Shown: piece by piece, positions 9,142-34,256 of the stretch
How the letters are laid out: every line of letters begins with the position of its first letter
Numbering within the stretch: the stretch's first letter is position 1
NCBI RefSeq assembly: GCF_947499845.1
Contig: NZ_CANMPM010000015.1
Coordinates: forward strand, 1 to 64,000
DNA length: 64,000 nucleotides
DNA from: an uncultured Pseudokineococcus sp.
Lineage (GTDB): Bacteria; Actinomycetota; Actinomycetes; Actinomycetales; Quadrisphaeraceae
Reading direction: 5' to 3'
Notes under the pieces: generated by a model
What the model was told of the DNA's origin: nothing
The model's database searches: none
The model's input: the letters and a program-made list of their open reading frames with translations, nothing else
Made by a program: the position numbers and the translations under genes

Positions 9142-10026
9142 GTGGCAGCAGGGCGGCGCGGACCGGGGCGGGCGGGCGGCGACGCCCCCGCGGGCGCGGG
9201 CGGCGTCGAGGTCCTGCGCGTGCGGGTCGACGGCGAGGGCCCCGCCGCGCAGGAGCGCCCCGACGTCGTCGCCGTCGAGGAGCCGCTCGAGGTCCGCGTC
9301 GCGGGGGCGCCGGTCGTCGTGACGATGCGCACGCCCGGTGACGACGACGACCTCGCCCTCGGCTTCCTGCTCACGGAGGGGCTGCTGCCCGGACCGGCGG
9401 CCGTCGCGCGCACCACCGCGTGCGTCGACCTCGACGCGGACGGTCGTCCCGTCGTCGGGTCGCTCGAGCTGGCCCTCGCCGACGGCGTCCCCGCGCCCGA
9501 CCTCGAGGGCCGTCGGACCTTCGGCATGACGTCGGCCTGCGGGGTCTGCGGCTCCGCGAGCGTGGACGCCGTGCGCGCCCGCACCGGGGCGAACCTCTTC
9601 CGCGACGACGTCGTCGTGGACGCCCGCGTGCTCGCCGCGCTGCCCGACCGGCTGCGGGAGGCCCAGCGCGTCTTCGACCGGACCGGCGGCCTGCACGCCG
9701 CCGGGCTCGCGACGGCCGACGGCGAGCTGCTCGTCGTGCGCGAGGACGTCGGGCGGCACAACGCCGTCGACAAGGTCCTCGGGCGAGCCGCCCGCGACAT
9801 CGGCTGGCCCCTGCGCGGCCACGTGCTCGTCGTCAGCGGCCGGGCGTCCTTCGAGCTCGCGCAGAAGGCCTGGATGGCCGGGGTGCCGGTGCTGGCCGCC
9901 GTCTCGGCGCCGTCGTCGCTCGCCGTGCAGCTGGCCCGCGAGGCGGGCATGACGCTCGCCGGGTTCGTGAGGCCCCCGACGCTCAACGTCTACACCGGCG
10001 CGCAGCGCGTCCGCACCGGCGCCTGA
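9142..10026 (+). CDS. fdhD: Formate dehydrogenase accessory sulfurtransferase FdhD
   Basis: The 294-residue protein carries the FdhD signature Cys pair C133-G-V-C136 (TSACGVCG), which takes sulfur from IscS-type desulfurase and delivers it to the molybdenum cofactor of formate dehydrogenase. Other family motifs are DDLALGFLLTEG, TGGLHAAG, REDVGRHNAVDK and SGRASFELAQKA. No formate dehydrogenase gene lies in the window, so the client enzyme is elsewhere. The gene stands alone, divergent from DUF3052, with a leaderless promoter. Confidence 0.93.
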   Translation: MAAGRRGPGRAGGDAPAGAGGVEVLRVRVDGEGPAAQERPDVVAVEEPLEVRVAGAPVVVTMRTPGDDDDLALGFLLTEGLLPGPAAVARTTACVDLDADGRPVVGSLELALADGVPAPDLEGRRTFGMTSACGVCGSASVDAVRARTGANLFRDDVVVDARVLAALPDRLREAQRVFDRTGGLHAAGLATADGELLVVREDVGRHNAVDKVLGRAARDIGWPLRGHVLVVSGRASFELAQKAWMAGVPVLAAVSAPSSLAVQLAREAGMTLAGFVRPPTLNVYTGAQRVRTGA

Positions 10027-10070
10027 GGACACCGCGCATCGGCGGCGCCTTCCCCCTCTCGCGAGCGGGA

Positions 10071-10209
10071 GAAGGCTACGAAGTCCGCCGCTGGTGCCCT
10101 TCACGACGGAAGAAGGCTACGAAGTCCGCCACTGGGCGCTTCCACGACGGAAGAAGGCTACGAAGTTCGCCATCGGGCGCCCCCAGGAGGGAAGAAGGCT
10201 GCGAAGTCC
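10071..10209. repeat. Intergenic 41-bp tandem repeat, family A (four copies)
   Basis: The core GAAGGCTACGAAGTCC starts at 10071, 10112, 10153 and, with changes, 10194: an exact 41-bp period. Most of the 41-bp unit is conserved, including a GACGGAA end. The core is visibly richer in A+T than its surroundings. It lies between the convergent fdhD and yjbQ genes. The same core, inverted and with the same period, recurs at 21855-21953. Confidence 0.85.
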
Positions 10210-10229: not shown

Positions 10230-10652
10230 TCAGCCGCGGACGAAGGACAGCCGGACGGTCCGGTCGGCGTTGTCGCGGTTGGTGTCGACGAGGCACACGC
10301 TCTGCCAGGTGCCGAGCGCCGGCCGGCCGTCGAGCACGGGCAGGACGAGCGAGGGGCTCACGAGCGCCGGCAGCACGTGGTCGCGCCCGTGCCCGGGCGA
10401 GCCGTGCGCGTGGCGCCACCCCTGCCCCTGCGGGCCCTCCGGCGGCAGGACGTCGCGCAGGGCCCGCAGCAGGTCCTCGTCGGAGCCCGCGCCCGTCTCG
10501 AGCACCGCGACGCCGGCGGTCGCGTGCGGCACGAAGACCGACAGCAGGCCCTCCGCCGCTCCCCAGTCGTCGAGGGCCTCCTCGACCCGCGCGGTGAGGT
10601 CCACCACGCGCTCGTCGCCGCCCGTGCGCACCGCCAGCGTCGTCGTCTCCAC
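10230..10652 (-). CDS. YjbQ/UPF0047 family protein (secondary thiamine-phosphate synthase type)
   Basis: The 140-residue product has the compact YjbQ fold signatures: FVPHATAGVAVLE, a central GHGRDHVLPALVSPSLVLPV stretch and the C-terminal GTWQSVCLVDTN with a terminal R-T-V-R-L-S-F strand. Family members can complement thiamine-phosphate synthase weakly; their true role is uncertain. It starts at GTG 10652. It is a single gene, convergent with fdhD across the 41-bp repeats. Confidence 0.88.
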   Translation of the reverse strand: METTTLAVRTGGDERVVDLTARVEEALDDWGAAEGLLSVFVPHATAGVAVLETGAGSDEDLLRALRDVLPPEGPQGQGWRHAHGSPGHGRDHVLPALVSPSLVLPVLDGRPALGTWQSVCLVDTNRDNADRTVRLSFVRG

Positions 10653-13714: not shown

Positions 13715-13819
13715 GGGCGAACCGGCGACGACTCGCCCCCGTGCGGGCCCGTCCAGGGCGAAGGGGCGACGACTCGCCCTCACGCGGCCTTTCCAGGGCG
13801 AACCGGCGACGACTCGCCC
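13715..13819. repeat. Intergenic 40/41-bp tandem repeat, family B (three copies)
   Basis: A 24-bp core with inverted ends, GGGCGA-N12-TCGCCC, starts at 13715, 13756 and 13796 (periods 41 and 40). All copies end in GGCGACGACTCGCCC. Each could fold into a small hairpin. The array lies exactly between two terminators separating the convergent aceE and TPR-like genes. A single further copy is at 22668-22691. Confidence 0.85.
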
Positions 13820-19038: not shown

Positions 19039-20331
19039 ATGTCCGAGCAGACGCCCCGCAGCGCAGCCGCGGGCACGAGCGGCGCCGTCGTCGTGACGGG
19101 GATGGGCGCCACCACCCCGCTCGGCGGTGACGTGCCGAGCACCTGGGAGGCGGCCCTGGCCGGCCGCTCCGGCGCCCGACCGCTGACGATGCCCTTCGTC
19201 GAGGAGCTCGGCCTGCCGGTGACCTTCGGCGGCACGCTGGCCGTCCCGGCGACCGACGTCCTCCCGCGGCACGAGTCCAAGCGCCTGGACCCCTCGGCGC
19301 AGTACGCCCTCATCGCCGGCCGCGAGGCCTGGGCGCAGGCGGGCGCCCCCGAGGTGGAGGGCGAGCGCCTCGGCGTCGTCGTCGCCACGGGCATCGGCGG
19401 CGTGACGACGCTCATCGGCGCCTACGACGTCCTGCGCGAGCGCGGCCCCCGGCGCGTGCTGCCCCTCACCGTGCCGATGCTCATGCCCAACGGCGCCGCC
19501 GGCGCCCTCGCCATCGAGTTCGGCGCGCAGGCGGGCGCCCACAGCCCCGCCTCGGCGTGCGCCTCCGGCGCGGAGGCCATCGCCTACGCCGCGGAGATGA
19601 TCCGCACGGGCCGCGCCGACGTCGTCATCGCGGGCGGCACCGAGGCCGCGATCCTCGCGCTGCCCATCGCCGCGTTCGCGTCCATGCACGCGCTGTCCCT
19701 GCGCAACGACACCCCCGAGACCGCCTCGCGCCCCTACGACGTCACGCGCGACGGCTTCGTCCTCGCCGAGGGCGCCGGGGTCGTCGTCCTCGAGTCCGAG
19801 GCGCACGCCGCCGCCCGCGGCGCCCGCGTGCTCGGCACCGTCGCCGGCGCCGGCATCACCTCCGACGCCCACCACATCGCCGCCCCGGACCCCGAGGGCC
19901 TCGGCGCCACGCGCGCCATGCGCCTCGCCCTCCAGCAGGCGGGGGCGCAGCCGAGCGACGTCGTCCACGTCAACGCGCACGCGACGTCGACCCCGGTCGG
20001 CGACGTCGCCGAGGCCGTCGCCCTGCGCGCGGCCCTGGGCGGCGCCACCGACGCCGTGGCGGTGTCGGCCACGAAGTCGATGACCGGCCACCTCCTCGGC
20101 GGCGCCGGGTCCCTCGAGGCGATCTTCTGCCTCAAGGCGCTCGAGGACGGCCTCGCCCCGCCGACGATCAACGTCACCGAGCTCGACCCGCAGATCGACC
20201 TCGACGTCGTCCTCGACGAGCCGCGGAAGATCCCGAACGGCCCCGACGTCGTCGCCCTCGACAACGCCTTCGGCTTCGGCGGCCACAACGCCGCCCTCGC
20301 GCTCACCGGCCCCCGCGGCGGTGCGGCGTGA
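19039..20331 (+). CDS. fabF: Beta-ketoacyl-ACP synthase II FabF
   Basis: The 430-residue elongating condensing enzyme has catalytic Cys174 (SACASGAEA), His314 (NAHATSTPVGD) and His351 (KSMTGHLLGGAG). It extends acyl-ACP with malonyl-ACP. The ATG at 19039 has an AGGAGG site 8 nt upstream. Its stop codon overlaps the GTG of the carboxylase gene. Upstream, 160 bp of Pro/Gly-codon-like sequence follows acpP with no clear gene or terminator. Confidence 0.95.
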   Translation: MSEQTPRSAAAGTSGAVVVTGMGATTPLGGDVPSTWEAALAGRSGARPLTMPFVEELGLPVTFGGTLAVPATDVLPRHESKRLDPSAQYALIAGREAWAQAGAPEVEGERLGVVVATGIGGVTTLIGAYDVLRERGPRRVLPLTVPMLMPNGAAGALAIEFGAQAGAHSPASACASGAEAIAYAAEMIRTGRADVVIAGGTEAAILALPIAAFASMHALSLRNDTPETASRPYDVTRDGFVLAEGAGVVVLESEAHAAARGARVLGTVAGAGITSDAHHIAAPDPEGLGATRAMRLALQQAGAQPSDVVHVNAHATSTPVGDVAEAVALRAALGGATDAVAVSATKSMTGHLLGGAGSLEAIFCLKALEDGLAPPTINVTELDPQIDLDVVLDEPRKIPNGPDVVALDNAFGFGGHNAALALTGPRGGAA

Positions 20332-21767
20332 GCGCCGTCGCGGCGCCCGAGGCGTCGGCCGCCGCCGAGGTCGACCCGAAGGACCCGCTGCACCGGCTGC
20401 GTCTCCTCTTCGACGAGGGCAGCGTCGAGGCCATCACGCCCGCCGACGACTCGGGCATGCTCGCCGCCACGGGCACGGTCGACGGCGCCCCCGCCGTCGC
20501 CTTCGCCTGCGACGCCCGGGTGCAGGGCGGGGCCATGGGCTCCGCCGGCAGCCGCGTCATCCTCACCGCCTACGAGCGAGCGCTGGCCGACGGGGTGCCG
20601 GTCGTCGGCGTCTGGCACTCCGGCGGCGCGCGGCTGCGGGAGGGCGTCGTGTCGCTCGACGCCTTCGGCGCCGTGTTCGCCGTCATGACCCGCGCCTCCG
20701 GCGTCGTGCCGCAGATCTCCGTCGTCGTGGGCCCGGCCGCCGGCGGCGCCGCCTACGGCCCCGCGCTGACCGACGTCGTCGTGCTGGCGCCCGAGGGCCG
20801 CGTCTTCGTCACCGGCCCCGACGTCGTGCGGTCCGTCACCGGCGAGGACGTCGACGCCGCCCGCCTCGGCGGGCCGGAGCCCCACGGGCGCCGCTCGGGC
20901 GTCGTGCACGTCGTCGCCGAGTCCCAGCACGGCGCCTACGCGCAGGCGCGCAAGCTGGTGCACCTGCTCGGCGCCCAGGGGTCGATGGACGTCGCCTCCG
21001 TCGGCGAGCGCGACCTGTCGGCGCACCTGCCGGACAACGTCAAGCGCGCGTACGACGTCCACCCGCTCGTCGACGACCTCCTCGACTCCCCCGCCGGGCA
21101 CGGCGAGGACGACGGCTCCCTCGAGCTGCACCCCCGCTGGGCGCCCAACGTCGTGACGACGCTGGGGCGCATGGGCGGGCGGACGGTCGGCGTCGTCGCC
21201 AACAACCCGCTGCGCCTGGGCGGCTGCCTCGACTCCTCCTCGGCGGAGAAGGCGGCCCGCTTCGTGCGGCTGTGCGACTCCCTCGGCGTGCCCCTCGTCG
21301 TCGTCGTCGACGTGCCGGGGTACCTGCCCGGCGTCGGCCAGGAGTGGGACGGCGTCGTGCGCCGCGGCGCCAAGCTGCTGCACGCCTTCGCCGAGTCCGT
21401 CGTGCCGCGCGTGACCCTCGTGACGCGCAAGACCTACGGCGGGGCCTACATCGCCATGAACTCCAAGTCGCTCGGCGCGACGCGGGTCTTCGCGTGGCCG
21501 ACGTCGGAGGTCGCCGTCATGGGCGCCGTCGCCGCCGTGCGGATCCTGCACCGCCGCCGGCTCGCCGAGGTGCCCGCCGACGCGAAGGCGGAGGTGGAGG
21601 CCGAGCTGGCCGCCGAGCACGAGCAGCTCTCGGGCGGTCTCGCGCGCGCGGTCGAGATCGGCGTCGTCGACGAGGTCGTCGAGCCGGTGGCCACCCGCAC
21701 GGCCCTCGCGGGCGCCATCGCCGCCGCGCCGCAGCGGCGCGGGGGGCACGGCAACATCCCGCTCTGA
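20328..21767 (+). CDS. Acyl-CoA (acetyl/propionyl-CoA) carboxylase, carboxyltransferase beta chain
   Basis: The 479-residue protein has two crotonase-like halves of the biotin-dependent carboxyltransferase: VWHSGGARLREGV and VVGPAAGGAAYGPALTD in the first, and VVVDVPGYLPGVGQEWDGVVRRGAKLL and RKTYGGAYIAMNSKSLGA in the second. It transfers carboxyl from carboxybiotin to acyl-CoA, making malonyl- or methylmalonyl-CoA. Being last in the fab operon suggests malonyl-CoA supply for fatty-acid synthesis (AccD-like). No biotin-carrier alpha subunit is encoded here. The GTG at 20328 overlaps the fabF stop. Confidence 0.93.
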   Translation: MSAVAAPEASAAAEVDPKDPLHRLRLLFDEGSVEAITPADDSGMLAATGTVDGAPAVAFACDARVQGGAMGSAGSRVILTAYERALADGVPVVGVWHSGGARLREGVVSLDAFGAVFAVMTRASGVVPQISVVVGPAAGGAAYGPALTDVVVLAPEGRVFVTGPDVVRSVTGEDVDAARLGGPEPHGRRSGVVHVVAESQHGAYAQARKLVHLLGAQGSMDVASVGERDLSAHLPDNVKRAYDVHPLVDDLLDSPAGHGEDDGSLELHPRWAPNVVTTLGRMGGRTVGVVANNPLRLGGCLDSSSAEKAARFVRLCDSLGVPLVVVVDVPGYLPGVGQEWDGVVRRGAKLLHAFAESVVPRVTLVTRKTYGGAYIAMNSKSLGATRVFAWPTSEVAVMGAVAAVRILHRRRLAEVPADAKAEVEAELAAEHEQLSGGLARAVEIGVVDEVVEPVATRTALAGAIAAAPQRRGGHGNIPL

Positions 21768-21790: not shown

Positions 21791-21828
21791 ACGACGAAGG
21801 GGCGCCCCGAGGGGCGCCCCTTCGTCGT
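21791..21828 (+). terminator. Terminator of the fatty-acid operon
   Basis: An 18-bp perfect stem (21791-21808 with 21811-21828), 23 bp after the carboxylase stop. Confidence 0.8.
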
Positions 21829-21854
21829 CGGCCGCCGAGGACGCCCCCGGGATC

Positions 21855-21953
21855 GGACTTCGTAGCCTTCTTCCGCCGACGAGGCGCCCTGGAGGGGACT
21901 TCGTAGCCTTGTTCCGTCCAGGAGGAGCCCGGAACGGGACTTCGTGGCCTTCC
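21855..21953. repeat. Intergenic 41-bp tandem repeat, family A inverted (three copies)
   Basis: GGACTTCGTAGCCTTC starts at 21855, 21896 and, with one change, 21937: a 41-bp period. It is the reverse complement of the core at 10071-10209. The array lies between the convergent carboxylase gene and DUF3145, just after the terminator. Confidence 0.85.
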
Positions 21954-22020
21954 TCCGCCGAGGAGAGCCCGGCACGCGACGCCGTCGACCTCTCCGCCGT
22001 GCGGCGCCGAGCCGCGGGGG

Positions 22021-22524
22021 TCAGCCGACGCGGTGCAGCCAGCGGACGGGCGCGCCGTCGCCGGCGTAGCGGAAGGGCTCGAGCTCGTCGTCCCACGCCG
22101 TCCCGAGGGCCAGGTCGAGCTCGGCGCGCACGTCGGCCGCGGAGTCGACGGCCGCCTCGAGGGCCGCGCGGACGCGGTCCTCGGGGACGAGGACGTTGCC
22201 GTGGACGTCGGTGACGGCGTGGAAGATGCCCAGCTCGGGCGTGTGGCTCCAGCGGCCGCCGTCGACGCCGGGGCTCGGCTCCTCGGTGACCTCGTAGCGC
22301 AGGTGCGCCCAGCCGCGCAGCGCCGACGCCAGGCGGGCGCCCGTGCCCTGCTCCGCCTGCCACGACAGCTCGGTGCGGTAGGCGCCCGGGGCGACCGGCT
22401 GCTCGATCCAGTCCAGGGTCGCGGACACGCCGAGGACCCCGCTCGCCGCCCACTCGACGTGGGGCAGCAGCGCGCGGGGCGAGGAGTGCACGAAGAGGAC
22501 TCCGCGCGTCAGTGCTCCGGGCAT
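22021..22524 (-). CDS. DUF3145 family protein
   Basis: The 167-residue protein matches DUF3145, an actinobacterial family commonly encoded next to the fab operon. Recognisable parts are RGVLFVHSSPRALLPHVEWA, ELSWQAEQGTGARLASAL, LRYEVTEEPS and a C-terminal GDGAPVRWLHRVG. The function is unknown; conservation beside fabF suggests a link to fatty-acid synthesis, but nothing in the sequence shows a reaction. It is convergent with the carboxylase gene and starts with ATG at 22524 after an AGGAGGGTC site. Confidence 0.88.
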   Translation of the reverse strand: MPGALTRGVLFVHSSPRALLPHVEWAASGVLGVSATLDWIEQPVAPGAYRTELSWQAEQGTGARLASALRGWAHLRYEVTEEPSPGVDGGRWSHTPELGIFHAVTDVHGNVLVPEDRVRAALEAAVDSAADVRAELDLALGTAWDDELEPFRYAGDGAPVRWLHRVG

Positions 22525-24443: not shown

Positions 24444-24517
24444 TAGGGCAGGTGGGGCTCGAACCCACGACCGGCGGATTATGAGTCCGCTGCTCTGACC
24501 GGCTGAGCTACTGCCCC
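24444..24517 (-). tRNA. tRNA-Met (anticodon CAU), elongator type
   Basis: A 74-nt cloverleaf with anticodon CAT at 24481-24483 in the elongator-like context GGACTCATAATCC. The acceptor stem has a G-U pair at 1-72, unlike an initiator tRNA only in degree, so the elongator call rests on the anticodon arm; tRNA-Ile2 (lysidine) is a less likely alternative. CCA is not encoded. Confidence 0.88.
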
Positions 24518-24624
24518 GGGTGCGCCGACCCTACCCAGCGCCCGCCGCGCCCGCGGCGTCGCCCGGACGGCGCGGAGGTGGCAGCACGACGGGCTAGAGG
24601 CCGTCCTCGTGCAGCCACCCCCGG

Positions 24625-24688
24625 CGCCAGCGGGTCGGGGCGTCAGCGGGTCGGGCCGTCAGCGGGTCGGGCCGTCAGCGGGTCGGGG
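24625..24688. repeat. 16-bp tandem repeat containing the thiolase stop codon
   Basis: Four units of CGTCAGCGGGTCGGG(C/G) run from 24625 to 24688. The unit at 24673-24688 contains the thiolase TGA (24675-24677) and its last codons; the other three copies lie downstream of the gene. A recent tandem duplication of the gene's 3' end is the simplest reading. Confidence 0.8.
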
Positions 24689-25904
24689 CGTGGAGCAGCA
24701 GCGCCTCGCCCTGCCCTCCCCCGCCGCACAGCGCGGCGACGCCCGTCCCCCCGCCCCGCGCCCGCAGGTCGAGCGCGAGGGTCAGGGCCAGGCGGGCGCC
24801 CGAGGCGCCGATCGGGTGCCCCAGGGCGATCGCCCCGCCGCGGGGGTTGACCCGGTCGAGGTCGACGCCGAGCTCGCGCACGGAGGCGAGGACGACGGCG
24901 GCGAAAGCCTCGTTGATCTCGAGGACGTCGAGGTCGCGCGGCGCGAGACCGGCTCGGGCGCAGGCACGCTCGACCGCGCGCGCGGGCTGGCTCTGCAGGG
25001 TCGAGTCGGGCCCCGCCACGAGGCCGTGGGCGCCGACCTCGGCGAGCCAGGGCAGCCCGGCGGCCTCCGCCCGCTCCCGGCGCATGACGACGAGCGCGGC
25101 CGCGCCGTCGGACACCGGCGACGCCGAGCCGGCGGTGATGGTGCCGTCGGGCCGGAAGGCCGGTGGCAGCGCGGCGAGGGCCTCCGGCGTCGTGCCCGGT
25201 CGCACGCCCTCGTCGGCCACCACCTCGACCGGCTCGCCGCGGCGCTGGGGCACGAGGACCGGGGTGATCTCCTCGGCGGCGCGGCCGTCGGCCGTCGCGG
25301 CCGCGGCGAGGCGGTGGCTGCGGGCGGCGAGGGCGTCCTGCTCCTCGCGCGTCGAGGCGCCCCGAGCAGTGCCGGAGGCGTCCGCCGCGCGGGCCGCCTC
25401 CTCCACCTCGGTGAGGGCGCCCATCGAGACGTCGGTGAAGGCGTCCCAGAGGCCGTCGTGCGAGGTCGCGTCCTGCACGACGGCGTCGCCGAAGCGGTAG
25501 CCGCCGCGCGCGCCGGGAAGCAGGTGCGGCGCGCCGCTCATCGACTCCATGCCCCCGGCGACGACGACGTCCGCCTCCCCCGCCCGGACGAGCTGGTCGG
25601 CCAGGGCGACGGCGCGCAGCCCCGACAGGCAGACGGCGTTGACCGTGAGGGCCGGCACGGACATCGGCACGCCCGCGGCCGCGGCCGCCTGCCGCGCCGG
25701 GTTCTGCCCCTGGCCGGCCTGGAGGACCTGGCCCATGAGCACCTGGTCGACCTCGCTCGCCGCGACACCGGCCCGCTCGAGGGCCGCACGGATCGCGGCC
25801 GCGCCGAGGTCGACGGCGCGCAGCGAGGACAGCGAGCCCTGGAGGCGGCCCATCGGCGTCCGGGCGCCGGCGACGACCACGGAGACGCGCCCAGGAGCGC
25901 TCAC
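24675..25904 (-). CDS. Acetyl-CoA C-acetyltransferase (thiolase)
   Basis: The 409-residue thiolase has the acyl-accepting cysteine in [10 protein letters not shown], the conserved NEAFAAVV, the histidine motif GHPIGASG and the second catalytic cysteine in CGGGGQG. It condenses or cleaves acetoacetyl-CoA-type substrates; direction and chain length cannot be decided from sequence. It starts with GTG at 25904. It is isolated between tRNA-Met and tRNA-Asn and not in a fatty-acid degradation operon. Confidence 0.92.
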
Positions 25905-30122: not shown

Positions 30123-31354
30123 CCGCCCGAGACGGACGCCTCGGCGTCCGCCACCATCCGCGCGGCGGAGCCGGTGAGCTCCCGCGAGTCGAGCCAGCCC
30201 TCGGGGAGGGCGACCCGCTTCGTCGCCGCGGTGCGCCCGCGCGGCCCCTCCGCGTCGTCGCCCGGCCACGGCGCGTCGGCGTCGAGCTCGGCGAGGACCT
30301 CGGCGAGCGCGTCGAGCGTCGGCACCAGGGCGAGGCGCTGCCGCAGCGAGGAGCCCACGGGGAAGCCCTTGAGGTACCAGGCGACGTGCTTGCGGATGTC
30401 GCGGCAGGCGCGGTCCTCGTCCGGCGCCTCCGCGGTGCCGAACTCCTCCGCGAGAAGGACGGCGTGCCGGTGCAGCATCGCCGCGACCTCGCCGAGGGAG
30501 GGGCGCACCCGCTCGGGACGGCCGGCGAAGGCGGCGGCGAGGTCGGCGAAGAGCCAGGGGCGCCCCAGGCAGCCGCGCCCGACGACGACGCCGTCGCAGC
30601 CCGTCTCGGCGACCATGCGCACCGCGTCCTCACCGGACCACACGTCGCCGTTGCCGAGCACCGGCACGCTCGTCACGGCCTCCTTGAGGCGGGCGATGCG
30701 GCTCCAGTCCGCGGTGCCGGAGTAGTACTGCTCGGCCGTCCGGGCGTGCAGCGCGACGGCGGCCGCCCCCTCGCCCTCGGCCGCACGACCGGCGTCGAGG
30801 TAGGTGTGGTGCTCGGCGTCGACGCCGACGCGCATCTTCACCGTGACGGGGACGCCGGCGGGCTCGGCCGCCCGCACCGCCTCGCGCACGACCGAGGCGA
30901 ACAGGGAGCTCTTCCACGGCAGCGCGGCGCCGCCGCCCCGGCGCGTCACCTTGGCCACGGGGCAGCCGAAGTTGAGGTCGACGTGGTCGGCCAGGTCCTC
31001 CTCGACGAGCACGCGGACGGCGGCGCCCACGGTGCGCGGCTCGACGCCGTACAGCTGGGTGCTCCGCAGGGCCACGCCGGGCCCGTGGCGCACGAGCCGC
31101 AGCGACTCGGGCGTGCGCTCCACGAGCGCCCGCGAGGTGACCATCTCCGAGACGAAGACGCCCTCGCCGCCCGCGGCCTCCATCTGCTCGCGGCACAGGG
31201 TCCGGTAGGCCTCGCCGGTGATGCCGGCCATCGGGGCGAGCACGACGGGCGTGCGCACCTCGTGGGGGCCGATGCGCAGCGGACCGGCCCCGGCGGTGGC
31301 CGGGCCCGCGGTCGGAGCGGTGGCGGTGGCGGTCACGCCCCCATCGTCCCCCAT
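30119..31354 (-). CDS. dus: tRNA-dihydrouridine synthase (DusB-type)
   Basis: This FMN-dependent flavoprotein reduces uridines in tRNA. The barrel starts with PVVLAPMAGITGEAYR; the catalytic cysteine is in NFGCPVAKVTRRGGGAA, and the later motifs HARTAEQYYSG, LGNGDVWS and GVVVGRGCLGRPW are all present. The length is about 411 residues from the ATG at 31354, or 405 from the GTG at 31336; both lack a convincing ribosome site. It is translationally coupled to dgt and divergent from the secreted carboxypeptidase. Confidence 0.93.
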   Translation of the reverse strand: MGDDGGVTATATAPTAGPATAGAGPLRIGPHEVRTPVVLAPMAGITGEAYRTLCREQMEAAGGEGVFVSEMVTSRALVERTPESLRLVRHGPGVALRSTQLYGVEPRTVGAAVRVLVEEDLADHVDLNFGCPVAKVTRRGGGAALPWKSSLFASVVREAVRAAEPAGVPVTVKMRVGVDAEHHTYLDAGRAAEGEGAAAVALHARTAEQYYSGTADWSRIARLKEAVTSVPVLGNGDVWSGEDAVRMVAETGCDGVVVGRGCLGRPWLFADLAAAFAGRPERVRPSLGEVAAMLHRHAVLLAEEFGTAEAPDEDRACRDIRKHVAWYLKGFPVGSSLRQRLALVPTLDALAEVLAELDADAPWPGDDAEGPRGRTAATKRVALPEGWLDSRELTGSAARMVADAEASVSGG

Positions 31355-31371: not shown

Positions 31372-31435
31372 GGCCGTCCACCGAGGCCGTCCACCGAGGC
31401 CGTCCACCGAGGCCGTCCACCGAGGCCGTCCACCG
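31372..31435. repeat. 13-bp tandem repeat in a divergent promoter region
   Basis: GGCCGTCCACCGA is repeated almost five times without interruption, from just upstream of the dus start towards the carboxypeptidase gene. Confidence 0.85.
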
Positions 31436-31565: not shown

Positions 31566-34256
31566 GTGCACCCCTCCCCCCTGCGGCGCGCAGCCGCGCG
31601 CGCGACCGTCGGCGGCGCCGTCGTCGCCCTCGCCGTCACCTCCGCCCCCGCCGCGACGGCCGCACCCCCCGGCGCGGCGCCGTCGTCGGCCCCCGGTCAG
31701 AGCGCCCGCGCGCAGGACGCGCCCGCCTCGGCCGCGGCGCTGGGGGCGGGTGCTCTCGGCCCCGCCGCCCGGTCGCGCGCCGCCGCGCCGTCCGCGGAGG
31801 CGGGACCCACGAGCTACCCCCAGCAGCCGCAGCTGCGGGTCTACCCCGACGACGCCGGCGACGCCTCGATCGCCCGCGGGGCCCTGCCCTACGACGAGAT
31901 CGCGCCTCGGCTCCAGGCGCTCATGGCCCGCAGCGACTACGTGTCCACCGAGGTCGTCGGCACGTCGACCCAGGGCCGCGAGCTGCTCCTCGTCACGCTC
32001 ACGGCGCCCGAGACGCCGGCGGAGACCGCGCAGCAGGCGGCGTGGCGCGACGCCATCAAGGACGACCCCGAGGCCGCCGCCGACGACGCCGCCCTGGCCG
32101 CCGGGTACAAGACGCCGGTCTGGTTCAACAACAACATCCACGGCAACGAGTGGGAGGGCACCGACGCCAGCCTCCAGTGGATGGAGGCGCTCGTGGACCG
32201 CGCCGAGGCCGGGGACGCCGACGCCGTCGCGACCCTGGCGGGCAGCCGCCTGTACTTCACGGTCACCAACAACCCCGACGGGCGGGTGGCCGGCCAGCGG
32301 CGCACCGCGCTGGACCTCGACCCGAACCGCGACTTCATCACCAACGAGACGCCCGAGACGGTCGCCGTCCGCGAGCTCGCCGGCCGCCTCCAGCCGCTCT
32401 TCTTCAGCGACATCCACGGCTACACGAGCGTGCTCCAGGTGGAGCCCTGCGGGCCGCCGCACGGCGAGAACTACGACTACGACCTCTTCATCCCCCACGC
32501 CTACGCCTCGGCGCTGCGCATCGAGGCCGACGTCGCCGCCGCCGACATCGAGGGCAACACCTACCTCGACGACGAGGGCGAGGTGACGGAGGAGAACACG
32601 GGCAAGATCCGCATCCCCTACCGCGACATCCGCTCCGGCTGGGACGACTGGCCGCCCATCTTCACGGCCCAGTACGTCGCCTTCCAGGGCGCCGTCACCT
32701 CCACCGTCGAGCTGCCGCTCGGGCGCGTGAGCACCTCGACGCCGGAGGGCCTCGCCGAGAGCGCTCGCCGGGCGGGCGTCAACACGGCCGTGGCCGAGCA
32801 GGTCATCACCTCGACGACCTCGTACGTGCTCGAGAACGCCGACGAGCTGCTCGCCAACCAGGTCGAGGTCTTCCGCCGCGGCTCCGCGGGCGAGCCGCTG
32901 CGCGAGATCGGCGCCGACCCCGACCCGGCGAGCATCCCCGGCCCCGACCAGTGGGCCCAGGTCTGGGACGAGACCGACGTGTACCGCGCCGAGTTCCCCG
33001 AGGCCTACGTCATCCCCGCCGGGGACCAGCGGTCCGCGGCGAGCGCCGCGCGCCTCGTCGACCACCTCGTCGACCACGGCGTCGAGGTCGGCCAGGCGGT
33101 GCGGGCCTTCCGCGCCGACGGCACCACCTATCCCCGGGGCTCCTACGTCGTCGACATGGCACAGCCCCTGCGCGGCATGGCGAACGTGCTGCTCGCCGAG
33201 GGCAGCGACATCTCCGACCGCGTCCCGAGCATGTACGACGTGTCGGCGTGGAGCCTCACCGACCTGTGGGGCGCCGACGTCCGCCGCGTGGAGGACCTGC
33301 CCTCGACCGGGCGCGGCTCCAGCGTGCTCGCCCGGCCGGTCGAGGAGGCCGCGCCGACGGGCGATGTCCCCCGCGGCACCGACCTGCGCCTGGCCCTCAC
33401 CGGCTCGGCCGAGGTGCGCGCGCTGAACAGCCTGCTGGCGGACGGCGTCCCGGTGGGGCTCCTGCCCGACGGGTCCGCCGTCCTCGACCGCCGCGAGCGG
33501 GCCGCCGCCGTGGCCGTCGCCGCCGAGGAGGGCGTCGTCTTCGAGCGCACGCGCGACGTGACGCCCGGCTCGGACGCGGTGCCGCTGCAGCGCCCGCTCC
33601 GGGTGGCCTACACGACGTCGTCGGCCGTCGACGACGCGGGCGAGGACTACCTCTCGCTCGAGGAGCTCGGCTACGCCGACCCGCTGCGGGTGACCGCGCA
33701 GGGCCTCGCCGACGGCACGACCGACCTGTCCGGCGTCGACGCCCTGTGGGTCGGCTCGGCGCTCTCGCGCGGCGCGCTGCCCGAGGAGGCGCTCGCCGCG
33801 CTGCGCGCCTTCGTCGACGACGGCGGCGACCTCGTCGGCACCGGCGTCGCCGCGGCGTCGCTCGCCCAGACGCTGGGCTACCTCGAGGCCACGGCGGTCC
33901 AGGGCAACCGCTCGGGCAACGGCGTCGTCGCCGTCAGCACGCCGGCCGGCTCGCTGCTCGACGGCTACGCCGAGGACCGCGCCTTCGTCTACGCCCCGGT
34001 GCACTTCACCGGCCTGGGCGTCGGCACCGTCGTGGAGCAGACCTACGGCGACGGCCCGCTCGTGGCCGGCCACTGGCGGGCGCTGGGCGACGGCACCGGC
34101 GGCCCCTCGTCGGCCGCGGGGCAGCCGTCGGTCGTCTCCGGCGAGAGCGCGGGCAGTGGTCGTGCGGTGGTGTTCGGGACCTACCCGACCTTCCGCGTCC
34201 ACCCCCTCGGCATGCTCGACGACGTGGCCCGCGCCCTGGGGTCCGCGACGAGCTGA
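31566..34256 (+). CDS. Secreted M14-family zinc carboxypeptidase
   Basis: The 896-residue preprotein has a signal peptide (basic start, hydrophobic residues about 15-32) and a Pro/Ala-rich spacer. The M14 peptidase domain has zinc ligands His192-x-x-Glu195 (NIHGNEWEG) and His284 (SDIHGYTS), plus the substrate-binding region LDLDPNRDF. The C-terminal half (from about residue 480) carries additional domains, including a ThuA/glutaminase-like segment near DALWVGSALSRG. It probably degrades extracellular peptides. It starts at GTG 31566. It is monocistronic and followed by a bidirectional terminator. Confidence 0.88.
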   Translation: MHPSPLRRAAARATVGGAVVALAVTSAPAATAAPPGAAPSSAPGQSARAQDAPASAAALGAGALGPAARSRAAAPSAEAGPTSYPQQPQLRVYPDDAGDASIARGALPYDEIAPRLQALMARSDYVSTEVVGTSTQGRELLLVTLTAPETPAETAQQAAWRDAIKDDPEAAADDAALAAGYKTPVWFNNNIHGNEWEGTDASLQWMEALVDRAEAGDADAVATLAGSRLYFTVTNNPDGRVAGQRRTALDLDPNRDFITNETPETVAVRELAGRLQPLFFSDIHGYTSVLQVEPCGPPHGENYDYDLFIPHAYASALRIEADVAAADIEGNTYLDDEGEVTEENTGKIRIPYRDIRSGWDDWPPIFTAQYVAFQGAVTSTVELPLGRVSTSTPEGLAESARRAGVNTAVAEQVITSTTSYVLENADELLANQVEVFRRGSAGEPLREIGADPDPASIPGPDQWAQVWDETDVYRAEFPEAYVIPAGDQRSAASAARLVDHLVDHGVEVGQAVRAFRADGTTYPRGSYVVDMAQPLRGMANVLLAEGSDISDRVPSMYDVSAWSLTDLWGADVRRVEDLPSTGRGSSVLARPVEEAAPTGDVPRGTDLRLALTGSAEVRALNSLLADGVPVGLLPDGSAVLDRRERAAAVAVAAEEGVVFERTRDVTPGSDAVPLQRPLRVAYTTSSAVDDAGEDYLSLEELGYADPLRVTAQGLADGTTDLSGVDALWVGSALSRGALPEEALAALRAFVDDGGDLVGTGVAAASLAQTLGYLEATAVQGNRSGNGVVAVSTPAGSLLDGYAEDRAFVYAPVHFTGLGVGTVVEQTYGDGPLVAGHWRALGDGTGGPSSAAGQPSVVSGESAGSGRAVVFGTYPTFRVHPLGMLDDVARALGSATS

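What the first reader, a model, noticed from the sequence alone, without database searches (positions are those of the whole stretch)
10071..10209. 41-bp intergenic tandem repeat family A, present again inverted 11.7 kb away
Four units with an exact 41-bp period and core GAAGGCTACGAAGTCC; three more, inverted, at 21855-21953. Both arrays sit between convergent genes. The core is less G+C-rich than its surroundings and strongly conserved, which argues against chance. It resembles mycobacterial MIRU/VNTR logic but the sequence is not one I recognise.
Basis: seen in the sequence. Interest (0 to 1): 0.6.

Follow-up and report, generated by a model that had tools for sequence, protein, structure and literature searches.

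The report
41-bp dyad arrays with changing words
The repeat is one of dozens of small intergenic arrays in the actinobacterium Pseudokineococcus, in which a 22-26 bp partly palindromic DNA element recurs every 41 bp at gene ends; related species keep arrays at the same addresses and the same spacing but often spell the element differently, which points to a spacing-dependent DNA-binding role rather than a passive minisatellite.

Summary
In detail: four units at 10071-10209 (41/41/41 bp), three inverted at 21855-21952 (41/41), both between convergent genes. They are not a lone pair: the 16-bp core (up to 2 mismatches) occurs 62 times in the 3.72-Mb genome (reversed-pattern control 0) and 65 times in P. 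marinus, but only at background outside the genus. Several differently spelled array families (A, B, C, E, F, probably D, G) share one architecture: a 22-26 bp dyad with inverted-repeat arms, often a central G(G/C)CNAC, and a 41(-42)-bp centre-to-centre period, kept even when a unit is inverted. At orthologous intergenic sites the array is usually kept but its word replaced (A/F, A/E, A/C, C/E). Spacer sequence turns over fast, spacer length hardly at all; copy number changes by whole units (4 here, 3 in P. marinus). No REP transposase (Y1) or TIGR-Tas Nop gene was found, and spacer hairpins do not covary. Best reading: phased binding arrays for an unidentified dimeric DNA-binding protein at gene 3' ends (about 0.35; the binder is inferred). 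Main rivals: a new REP-like mobile palindrome; an RNA 3'-end element. New variant of a known kind (intergenic palindromic repeats), undescribed as far as I could search.

The parts
10066..10209 (+). Family A array 1: four 22-bp dyad cores (16-mers at 10071-10086, 10112-10127, 10153-10168, 10194-10209) at exact 41-bp spacing with variable spacers
21851..21957 (-). Family A array 2: three cores (16-mers at 21855-21870, 21896-21911, 21937-21952) in inverse orientation at 41-bp spacing
13715..13819 (+). Family B array: three cores GGGCGAACCGGCGACGACTCGCCC-like (13715-13738, 13756-13779, 13796-13819), spacings 41 and 40; same architecture, different word, also between convergent genes
9220..10026 (+). 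fdhD (FdhD/NarQ), left neighbour of array 1, ends 44 bp before the first core
10230..10652 (-). UPF0047 (YjbQ-type) gene, right neighbour of array 1, converging
20328..21767 (+). carboxyl transferase (acetyl/propionyl-CoA carboxylase type), left neighbour of array 2
21791..21828 (.). terminator-like hairpin (long perfect stem) between the carboxyl transferase gene and array 2, separate from the array
22021..22491 (-). DUF3145 gene, right neighbour of array 2, converging

Best explanation
The arrays are phased binding platforms at gene 3' ends. Each 22-26 bp core is a dyad (inverted-repeat arms around an asymmetric centre, often GSCNAC) that I infer is bound as double-stranded DNA by a dimeric, sequence-specific, lineage-restricted protein; consecutive dimers sit 41 bp (about four helical turns) apart, so neighbours can touch and build a filament of 2-10 units. 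I infer that such a complex marks or insulates the 3' end of genes (against colliding transcription, or as a supercoil/nucleoid organising site, as proposed for BIMEs). The binder and its recognised arms drift together, so each species has its own 'words' while addresses and spacing are kept. SHOWN: dispersal, dyad arms, common centre of the main words, 41-bp centre spacing in both orientations, 3'-end location, conserved spacer length, whole-unit copy-number change, word replacement at conserved sites. INFERRED: existence and nature of the protein, binding to DNA rather than RNA, cooperative contact, the boundary role.
For: 62 copies in the own genome and 65 in P. marinus, control 0, background outside the genus. 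Spacing: 86 of 96 adjacent same-direction units exactly 41 bp; between dyad centres, inverted A pairs are also 41 bp (2 of 2 own, 5 of 5 P. marinus), and words B, C, E, F, G give mostly 41-42. Spacers diverge (48% identity between arrays, 33% expected from composition) yet only 5 of 44 adjacent spacer pairs differ in length where the local noncoding indel:substitution ratio predicts roughly 100 indels (rough). Own vs P. marinus divergence: core 8.9%, other intergenic DNA 12.5%, spacer 17.1%. Different words share the dyad-anchored centre: A GGCTAC, B GGCGAC, C GGCCAC, E GCCGAC; a GSCNAC centre lies at the best dyad of 22 of 60 array consensuses against 0.5 in shuffles; arm runs longer than in shuffles (4.4 vs 3.7, sd 0.11). 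Arms change together between words and, at one pair, inside word C (93% vs 68% expected, z 7). Same intergenic site, different word in another species at seven sites. A arrays: 12 of 23 convergent, 1 divergent, against 20% and 19% of gene pairs. Mixed-orientation arrays are common in word C, which suits a dyad read as DNA.
Against: No binding protein identified and no binding, expression or phenotype data. Rare odd spacings include half-turn offsets (36, 46 bp) as well as whole-turn ones (31, 51), so helical phasing is not proved by the exceptions. In co-directional gene pairs word A mostly points the same way relative to the gene, roughly 9 independent loci against 2, which a pure dyad model does not need and an RNA model would. 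Arms are imperfect in many units, and within word A they do not covary. Amplification of different words could equally be mobility.
Confidence: 0.35

Rival explanations
1. REP/BIME-like selfish or domesticated mobile palindromes: each word is a short non-autonomous element copied around the genome by a word-specific enzyme other than a Y1 transposase; the 3'-end location is only where insertions are tolerated, and different words land in the same hot spots.
For: Multi-copy, palindromic, intergenic, several words per genome, lineage-restricted words, 3'-end and convergent preference as reported for REPs (PMC3733652); a word-C array present in P. marinus and missing at the own orthologous site.
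Against: No Y1_Tnp (RAYT) gene found in the own genome; no GTAG/CGTC end tag; [quoted passage not shown] 17 P. marinus A arrays sit at the same site as an own A array, one more where the own genome has a single unit, so little recent movement; same address with another word at 7 sites is not expected of free insertion.
Confidence: 0.28
2. An RNA element of 3' untranslated regions (terminator, Rho entry or block, mRNA-end protector or processing site), acting as a series of stem-loops or unpaired conserved segments every 41 nt.
For: 3'-end location; in co-directional contexts word A reads ...GGACTTCGTAGCC... in the transcript at about 9 of 11 independent loci, and the same reading is kept with word F at an orthologous site; 13 of 18 convergent regions with arrays lack another strong hairpin.
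Against: Spacer hairpins are no better than chimeras of different spacers (z +0.5); strong separate terminator hairpins flank several arrays, and regions without arrays lack strong hairpins nearly as often (60% vs 72%); word C arrays are frequently of mixed orientation; an exact 41-nt spacing is not needed by an unfolded RNA signal; no Rfam match.
Confidence: 0.2
3. Passive minisatellite/VNTR: slipped-strand tandem duplication of meaningless intergenic DNA, homogenised within arrays.
For: Whole-unit copy-number change between species; spacers more alike within arrays (71%) than between (48%).
Against: Same core at ~25 separate places, core conserved above flanking noncoding DNA, spacer length kept though sequence is not, common centre across words, in-phase inversions.
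Confidence: 0.08
4. A guide-RNA array (CRISPR or TIGR type).
For: Regular repeats with variable spacers.
Against: Spacers share a consensus and are shared between species at orthologous sites; ~25 small arrays per word; no Nop-domain (TIGR-Tas) gene; only a ~19-bp spacer. cas genes were not searched for.
Confidence: 0.02

Closest known systems
REP / BIME / REPIN elements (GTAG- and CGTC-tagged palindromes)
   Same: 20-40 bp palindromic intergenic repeats, several families per genome, often grouped, mostly downstream of genes and between convergent or co-directional genes (PMC3733652)
   Different: No GTAG/CGTC end tag, asymmetric centre with GSCNAC, head-to-tail order dominant, strict 41-bp centre spacing, no Y1 transposase found; Actinobacteria not among the phyla listed for REPs in that paper
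Mycobacterial MIRU/VNTR loci
   Same: intergenic tandem repeats dispersed over the genome with copy-number differences
   Different: MIRU units are longer and of different sequence (own knowledge, not compared here); here a dyad core, variable spacers of fixed length and word replacement between species
DNA uptake sequence dialects of Neisseriaceae (PMC3630211)
   Same: genome-wide short words that change spelling between related species, with a cognate receptor (ComP); often near gene ends (own knowledge)
   Different: DUS are 10-12 bp, far more numerous and not in 41-bp arrays (own knowledge); DNA uptake was not tested here
Iteron / operator arrays bound by cooperative dimers (own knowledge)
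   Same: sites of about 22 bp repeated in phase in small clusters
   Different: many dispersed chromosomal gene 3' ends rather than one origin, centromere or promoter; no binder known

Membership tests
REP/BIME (RAYT-associated palindromes) | GTAG or CGTC tetranucleotide at one end of the palindrome | tested here: not met
   Consensus cores of words A, B, C, E, F lack the tag at the foot of the dyad; a GTAG lies only inside the centre of word A read on the other strand (definition)
REP/BIME (RAYT-associated palindromes) | RAYT (Y1 HUH) transposase in the genome | tested here: not met
   PF01797: no match in the own draft genome (97.6% complete); five control genomes match. REP genomes without a RAYT exist (own knowledge), so not decisive
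REP/BIME (RAYT-associated palindromes) | palindromic, intergenic, downstream of genes, rarely between divergent genes | tested here: met
   Arms CGGA/TCCG etc.; contexts
REP/BIME (RAYT-associated palindromes) | pairs mostly head-head or tail-tail; [quoted passage not shown]
   Own and P. marinus word A: 84 direct against 7 inverted neighbours (rule)
MIRU/VNTR | dispersed intergenic tandem repeats with copy-number differences | tested here: met
   4 vs 3 and 1 vs 3 units between two species; strains of one species were not available
MIRU/VNTR | sequence homology to mycobacterial MIRU | not tested
   No direct comparison with MIRU sequences; the paired word-A pattern is absent from the 115 or so sampled genomes outside the genus
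CRISPR or TIGR array | unrelated unique spacers plus effector genes | tested here: not met
   Spacers share a consensus; PF01798 absent; cas genes not searched
Intrinsic terminator / RNA hairpin array | hairpins maintained by compensatory change | tested here: inconclusive
   Spacer chimera test z +0.5 (not maintained); core arms do not covary within word A, one pair does in word C, and arms stay complementary between words, which fits a DNA dyad as well as a hairpin
Protein-bound phased dyad array | specific protein binding dependent on the 41-bp phase | not testable with these tools
   Needs binding experiments

The most novel reading that the evidence does not exclude
A genus-wide system of 41-bp-phased dyad arrays at gene 3' ends, read by a fast-evolving DNA-binding protein family: the address and the geometry are conserved while the recognised word is rewritten across the genome, a chromatin-like boundary code in an actinobacterium.
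Probability: 0.25. Interest if true: 0.8.

Novelty: new variant of a known kind. Interest (0 to 1): 0.58.

Why it matters
Bacterial intergenic repeats are usually explained as mobile palindromes or minisatellites. Here position and spacing outlive the sequence of the element itself: in several orthologous intergenic regions one species has word A and another has word C, E or F on the same 41-bp clock. If a trans-acting binder exists, this is a natural experiment on how a genome-wide binding code is rewritten, and a candidate 3'-end boundary or supercoiling device between convergent genes. If the elements are mobile instead, they are a REP-like system without the known transposase, in a phylum not listed for REPs in the survey read here.

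Tried and rejected
RNA hairpins in the spacer: single folds look good, but chimeras of different spacers fold as well, so rejected as a maintained structure. RAYT and TIGR-Tas: no gene. Viral contigs: no word-A pair. Rfam: only tRNAs in the window. Literature: the core string gives no paper; 41-bp plus tandem repeat plus intergenic plus actinobacter gives none; other searches unspecific. Replacement of terminators by arrays: strong hairpin in 28% vs 40% of convergent regions with and without arrays, n = 18 and 63, no clear difference. Strict helical phasing from the odd spacings: not supported, both in-phase and out-of-phase exceptions. A special gene at the C7 cluster of arrays (L038): the three neighbours scanned are two ordinary metabolic enzymes and one protein with a weak nuclease-like hit below cut-off. 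The first run of the ortholog alignment failed on a parameter and was repeated. Own 'E' arrays found at 7 mismatches partly overlap word B, so B and E may be one lineage.

Full report
OBSERVATION. The sequence shows four cores GAAGGCTACGAAGTCC (0-1 mismatch) at 10071, 10112, 10153, 10194 and three on the other strand at 21855, 21896, 21937. Seven matches at up to three mismatches compare with 0.31 expected and a maximum of 3 in 100 shuffles. Tandem Repeats Finder gives period 41 to both arrays.

SCALE. The window is contig 15, positions 1-64000, of a 3.72-Mb draft genome. The core occurs there 62 times at up to two mismatches, with none for the reversed pattern, in about 25 arrays. A neighbouring genome of the genus, identified as Pseudokineococcus marinus JCM 14547 through the titles and lengths of the matching contigs, has 65. 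Two further species of the genus (G002, G003) have 11 and 9 matches, few of them in arrays, and the other sampled genomes are at background. No word-A pair is in viral contigs.

ANATOMY. Aligning the units gives CGGAnRARGGCTACGAASTCCG: a 22-bp core whose ends CGGA and TCCG are complementary, then a spacer of about 19 bp. 86 of 96 neighbouring same-direction units are exactly 41 bp apart. Five P. marinus and two own pairs are inverted; their 16-mers are 45 bp apart, which is again 41 bp between dyad centres. One inverted pair in G002 is 35 apart, that is 31 between centres.

SPACER LENGTH IS CONSTRAINED, SPACER SEQUENCE IS NOT. Between own and P. marinus orthologous arrays, substitutions are 8.9% in cores, 12.5% in other noncoding DNA, 17.1% in spacers and 4.2% in coding DNA. 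Most small gaps inside arrays in those alignments come in offsetting pairs, and length changes are mainly of whole units, for example 4 units in this window and 3 in P. marinus with a gap of exactly 41 bp. At another site the own genome has one unit and P. marinus three, an 82-bp difference. Spacers of different arrays are 48% alike (33% from composition), of the same array 71%; only 5 of 44 adjacent spacers differ in length, where the indel-to-substitution ratio of neighbouring noncoding DNA would give roughly 100 indels (order of magnitude only, because distances saturate and arrays may homogenise).

OTHER WORDS, SAME CLOCK. Intergenic tandem repeats in unselected stretches of three Pseudokineococcus genomes are rich in periods of 40-42 bp and multiples (5 of 21, 6 of 10 and 8 of 11 repeats of period 20 or more), with other sequences; about 570 kb from other genera of the family gave two such periods, 42 and 125 bp. 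The words are B GGGCGAACCGGCGACGACTCGCCC (in this window at 13715-13819), C GGGCGACATGGCCACACGTCGCCC (107 copies in the own genome, 51, 34 and 2 in the other three), E and F, jointly CGGCACTTCGNCGNCNNNGTGCCG (46 copies in G002, 44 in G003, 10 own, 7 P. marinus, 2-3 in other genera), and probably D and G (GGTGAAG-type arms). Anchored by their dyads, A, B, C and E have the same centre at the same position: GGCTAC, GGCGAC, GGCCAC, GCCGAC. A GSCNAC centre sits at the best dyad of 22 of 60 array consensuses against 0.46 in shuffled units; arm runs average 4.4 against 3.7 (sd 0.11). Among array consensuses outside words A-C it is found in only 1 of 15, so the common centre is solid for A, B, C and part of E and looser for the rest. 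Arms differ between words but stay complementary (C-G to G-C, G-C to C-G, A-T to G-C).

SAME ADDRESS, DIFFERENT WORD. Of 11 array sites in G002 or G003 whose flanks could be placed in the own sequences held, 10 have an array in the same intergenic region of the own genome: three with the same word (the fdhD site of this window, a word-C site, and a word-A variant ending GAAGACC) and seven with another word: A for F twice, A for E twice, A for C, C for E, B/E for F. In the A-for-C case the end of the left gene and the end of the right gene are recognisably the same in both species, with three A units in one and two C units in the other. Caveat: most own sequences held were fetched around arrays. 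If one in four landings in such loci hit the array-bearing region by chance (my assumption), ten of eleven would still be very unlikely; restricted to the five sites from unselected G002/G003 stretches the count is four of five.

LOCATION. Word A arrays in the own genome: 12 convergent, 10 co-directional, 1 divergent; background gene pairs 20% convergent and 19% divergent. Word C: 6 convergent, 11 co-directional, 1 divergent. In co-directional contexts word A points against the gene in about 9 of 11 independent loci, a lead toward a transcription-linked function that is not strong by itself. Arrays do not simply replace hairpin terminators.

MECHANISM. The strict centre-to-centre spacing in both orientations, the tolerance of inverted units, the arms that keep symmetry when the word changes, and the failure of a spacer-hairpin test favour recognition as double-stranded DNA by a dimer, repeated about every four helical turns. 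That a protein does this, that neighbours touch, and that the result is a 3'-end boundary or supercoiling site is inference; I put it at 0.35. A REP-like mobile system (0.28) is the closest rival: REPs share location, palindromy and multiplicity (PMC3733652), but the tag, the usual head-head or tail-tail order and the transposase are missing. An RNA 3'-end element (0.2) is supported by the orientation lead and weakened by mixed orientations and the lack of structure covariation in spacers. A passive minisatellite (0.08) does not explain dispersal, constrained length or common centre.

COMPARISON AND NOVELTY. I found no paper that describes the core or a 41-bp intergenic array in Actinobacteria, within a library that lacks most subscription journals. 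Dialect change across a genome has a precedent in the DNA uptake sequences of Neisseriaceae (PMC3630211), which are much shorter and not arrayed (own knowledge). I rate it a new variant of a known kind, intergenic palindromic repeats, with an unusual combination of conserved address, conserved geometry and changing word.

Noticed in passing
L031 4137-4353 (own contig C1 about 73136-73352): Two to three tandem 85-bp copies carrying what looks like the 3' part of a tRNA (GGTTCGAGTCCCGC...TGGCTCC) beside a word-A array: partial tRNA duplication.
   Followed up: no
L038 (own contig C7 28000-44000): Cluster of at least five word-A arrays within about 11 kb; the syntenic G002 stretch has word-F arrays at two of the same sites.
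   Followed up: partly
window 31372-31435: Perfect 13-bp tandem repeat GGCCGTCCACCGA, about five copies, in the divergent region between genes ending at 31336 (-) and starting at 31566 (+).
   Followed up: no
window 24623-24691: 16-bp tandem repeat GGCGTCAGCGGGTCGG, 4.3 copies at 94% match, about 100 bp from a tRNA gene at 24444-24517.
   Followed up: no
L176 4320-4430 vs L037 5580-5613: A three-unit word-C array present in P. marinus and absent at the orthologous own site, a presence/absence difference useful for deciding between insertion and loss.
   Followed up: partly
L244 12779-15185 (G006): Two intergenic blocks of a 183-bp tandem repeat (3.8 and 6.5 copies) in another genus of the family.
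   Followed up: no
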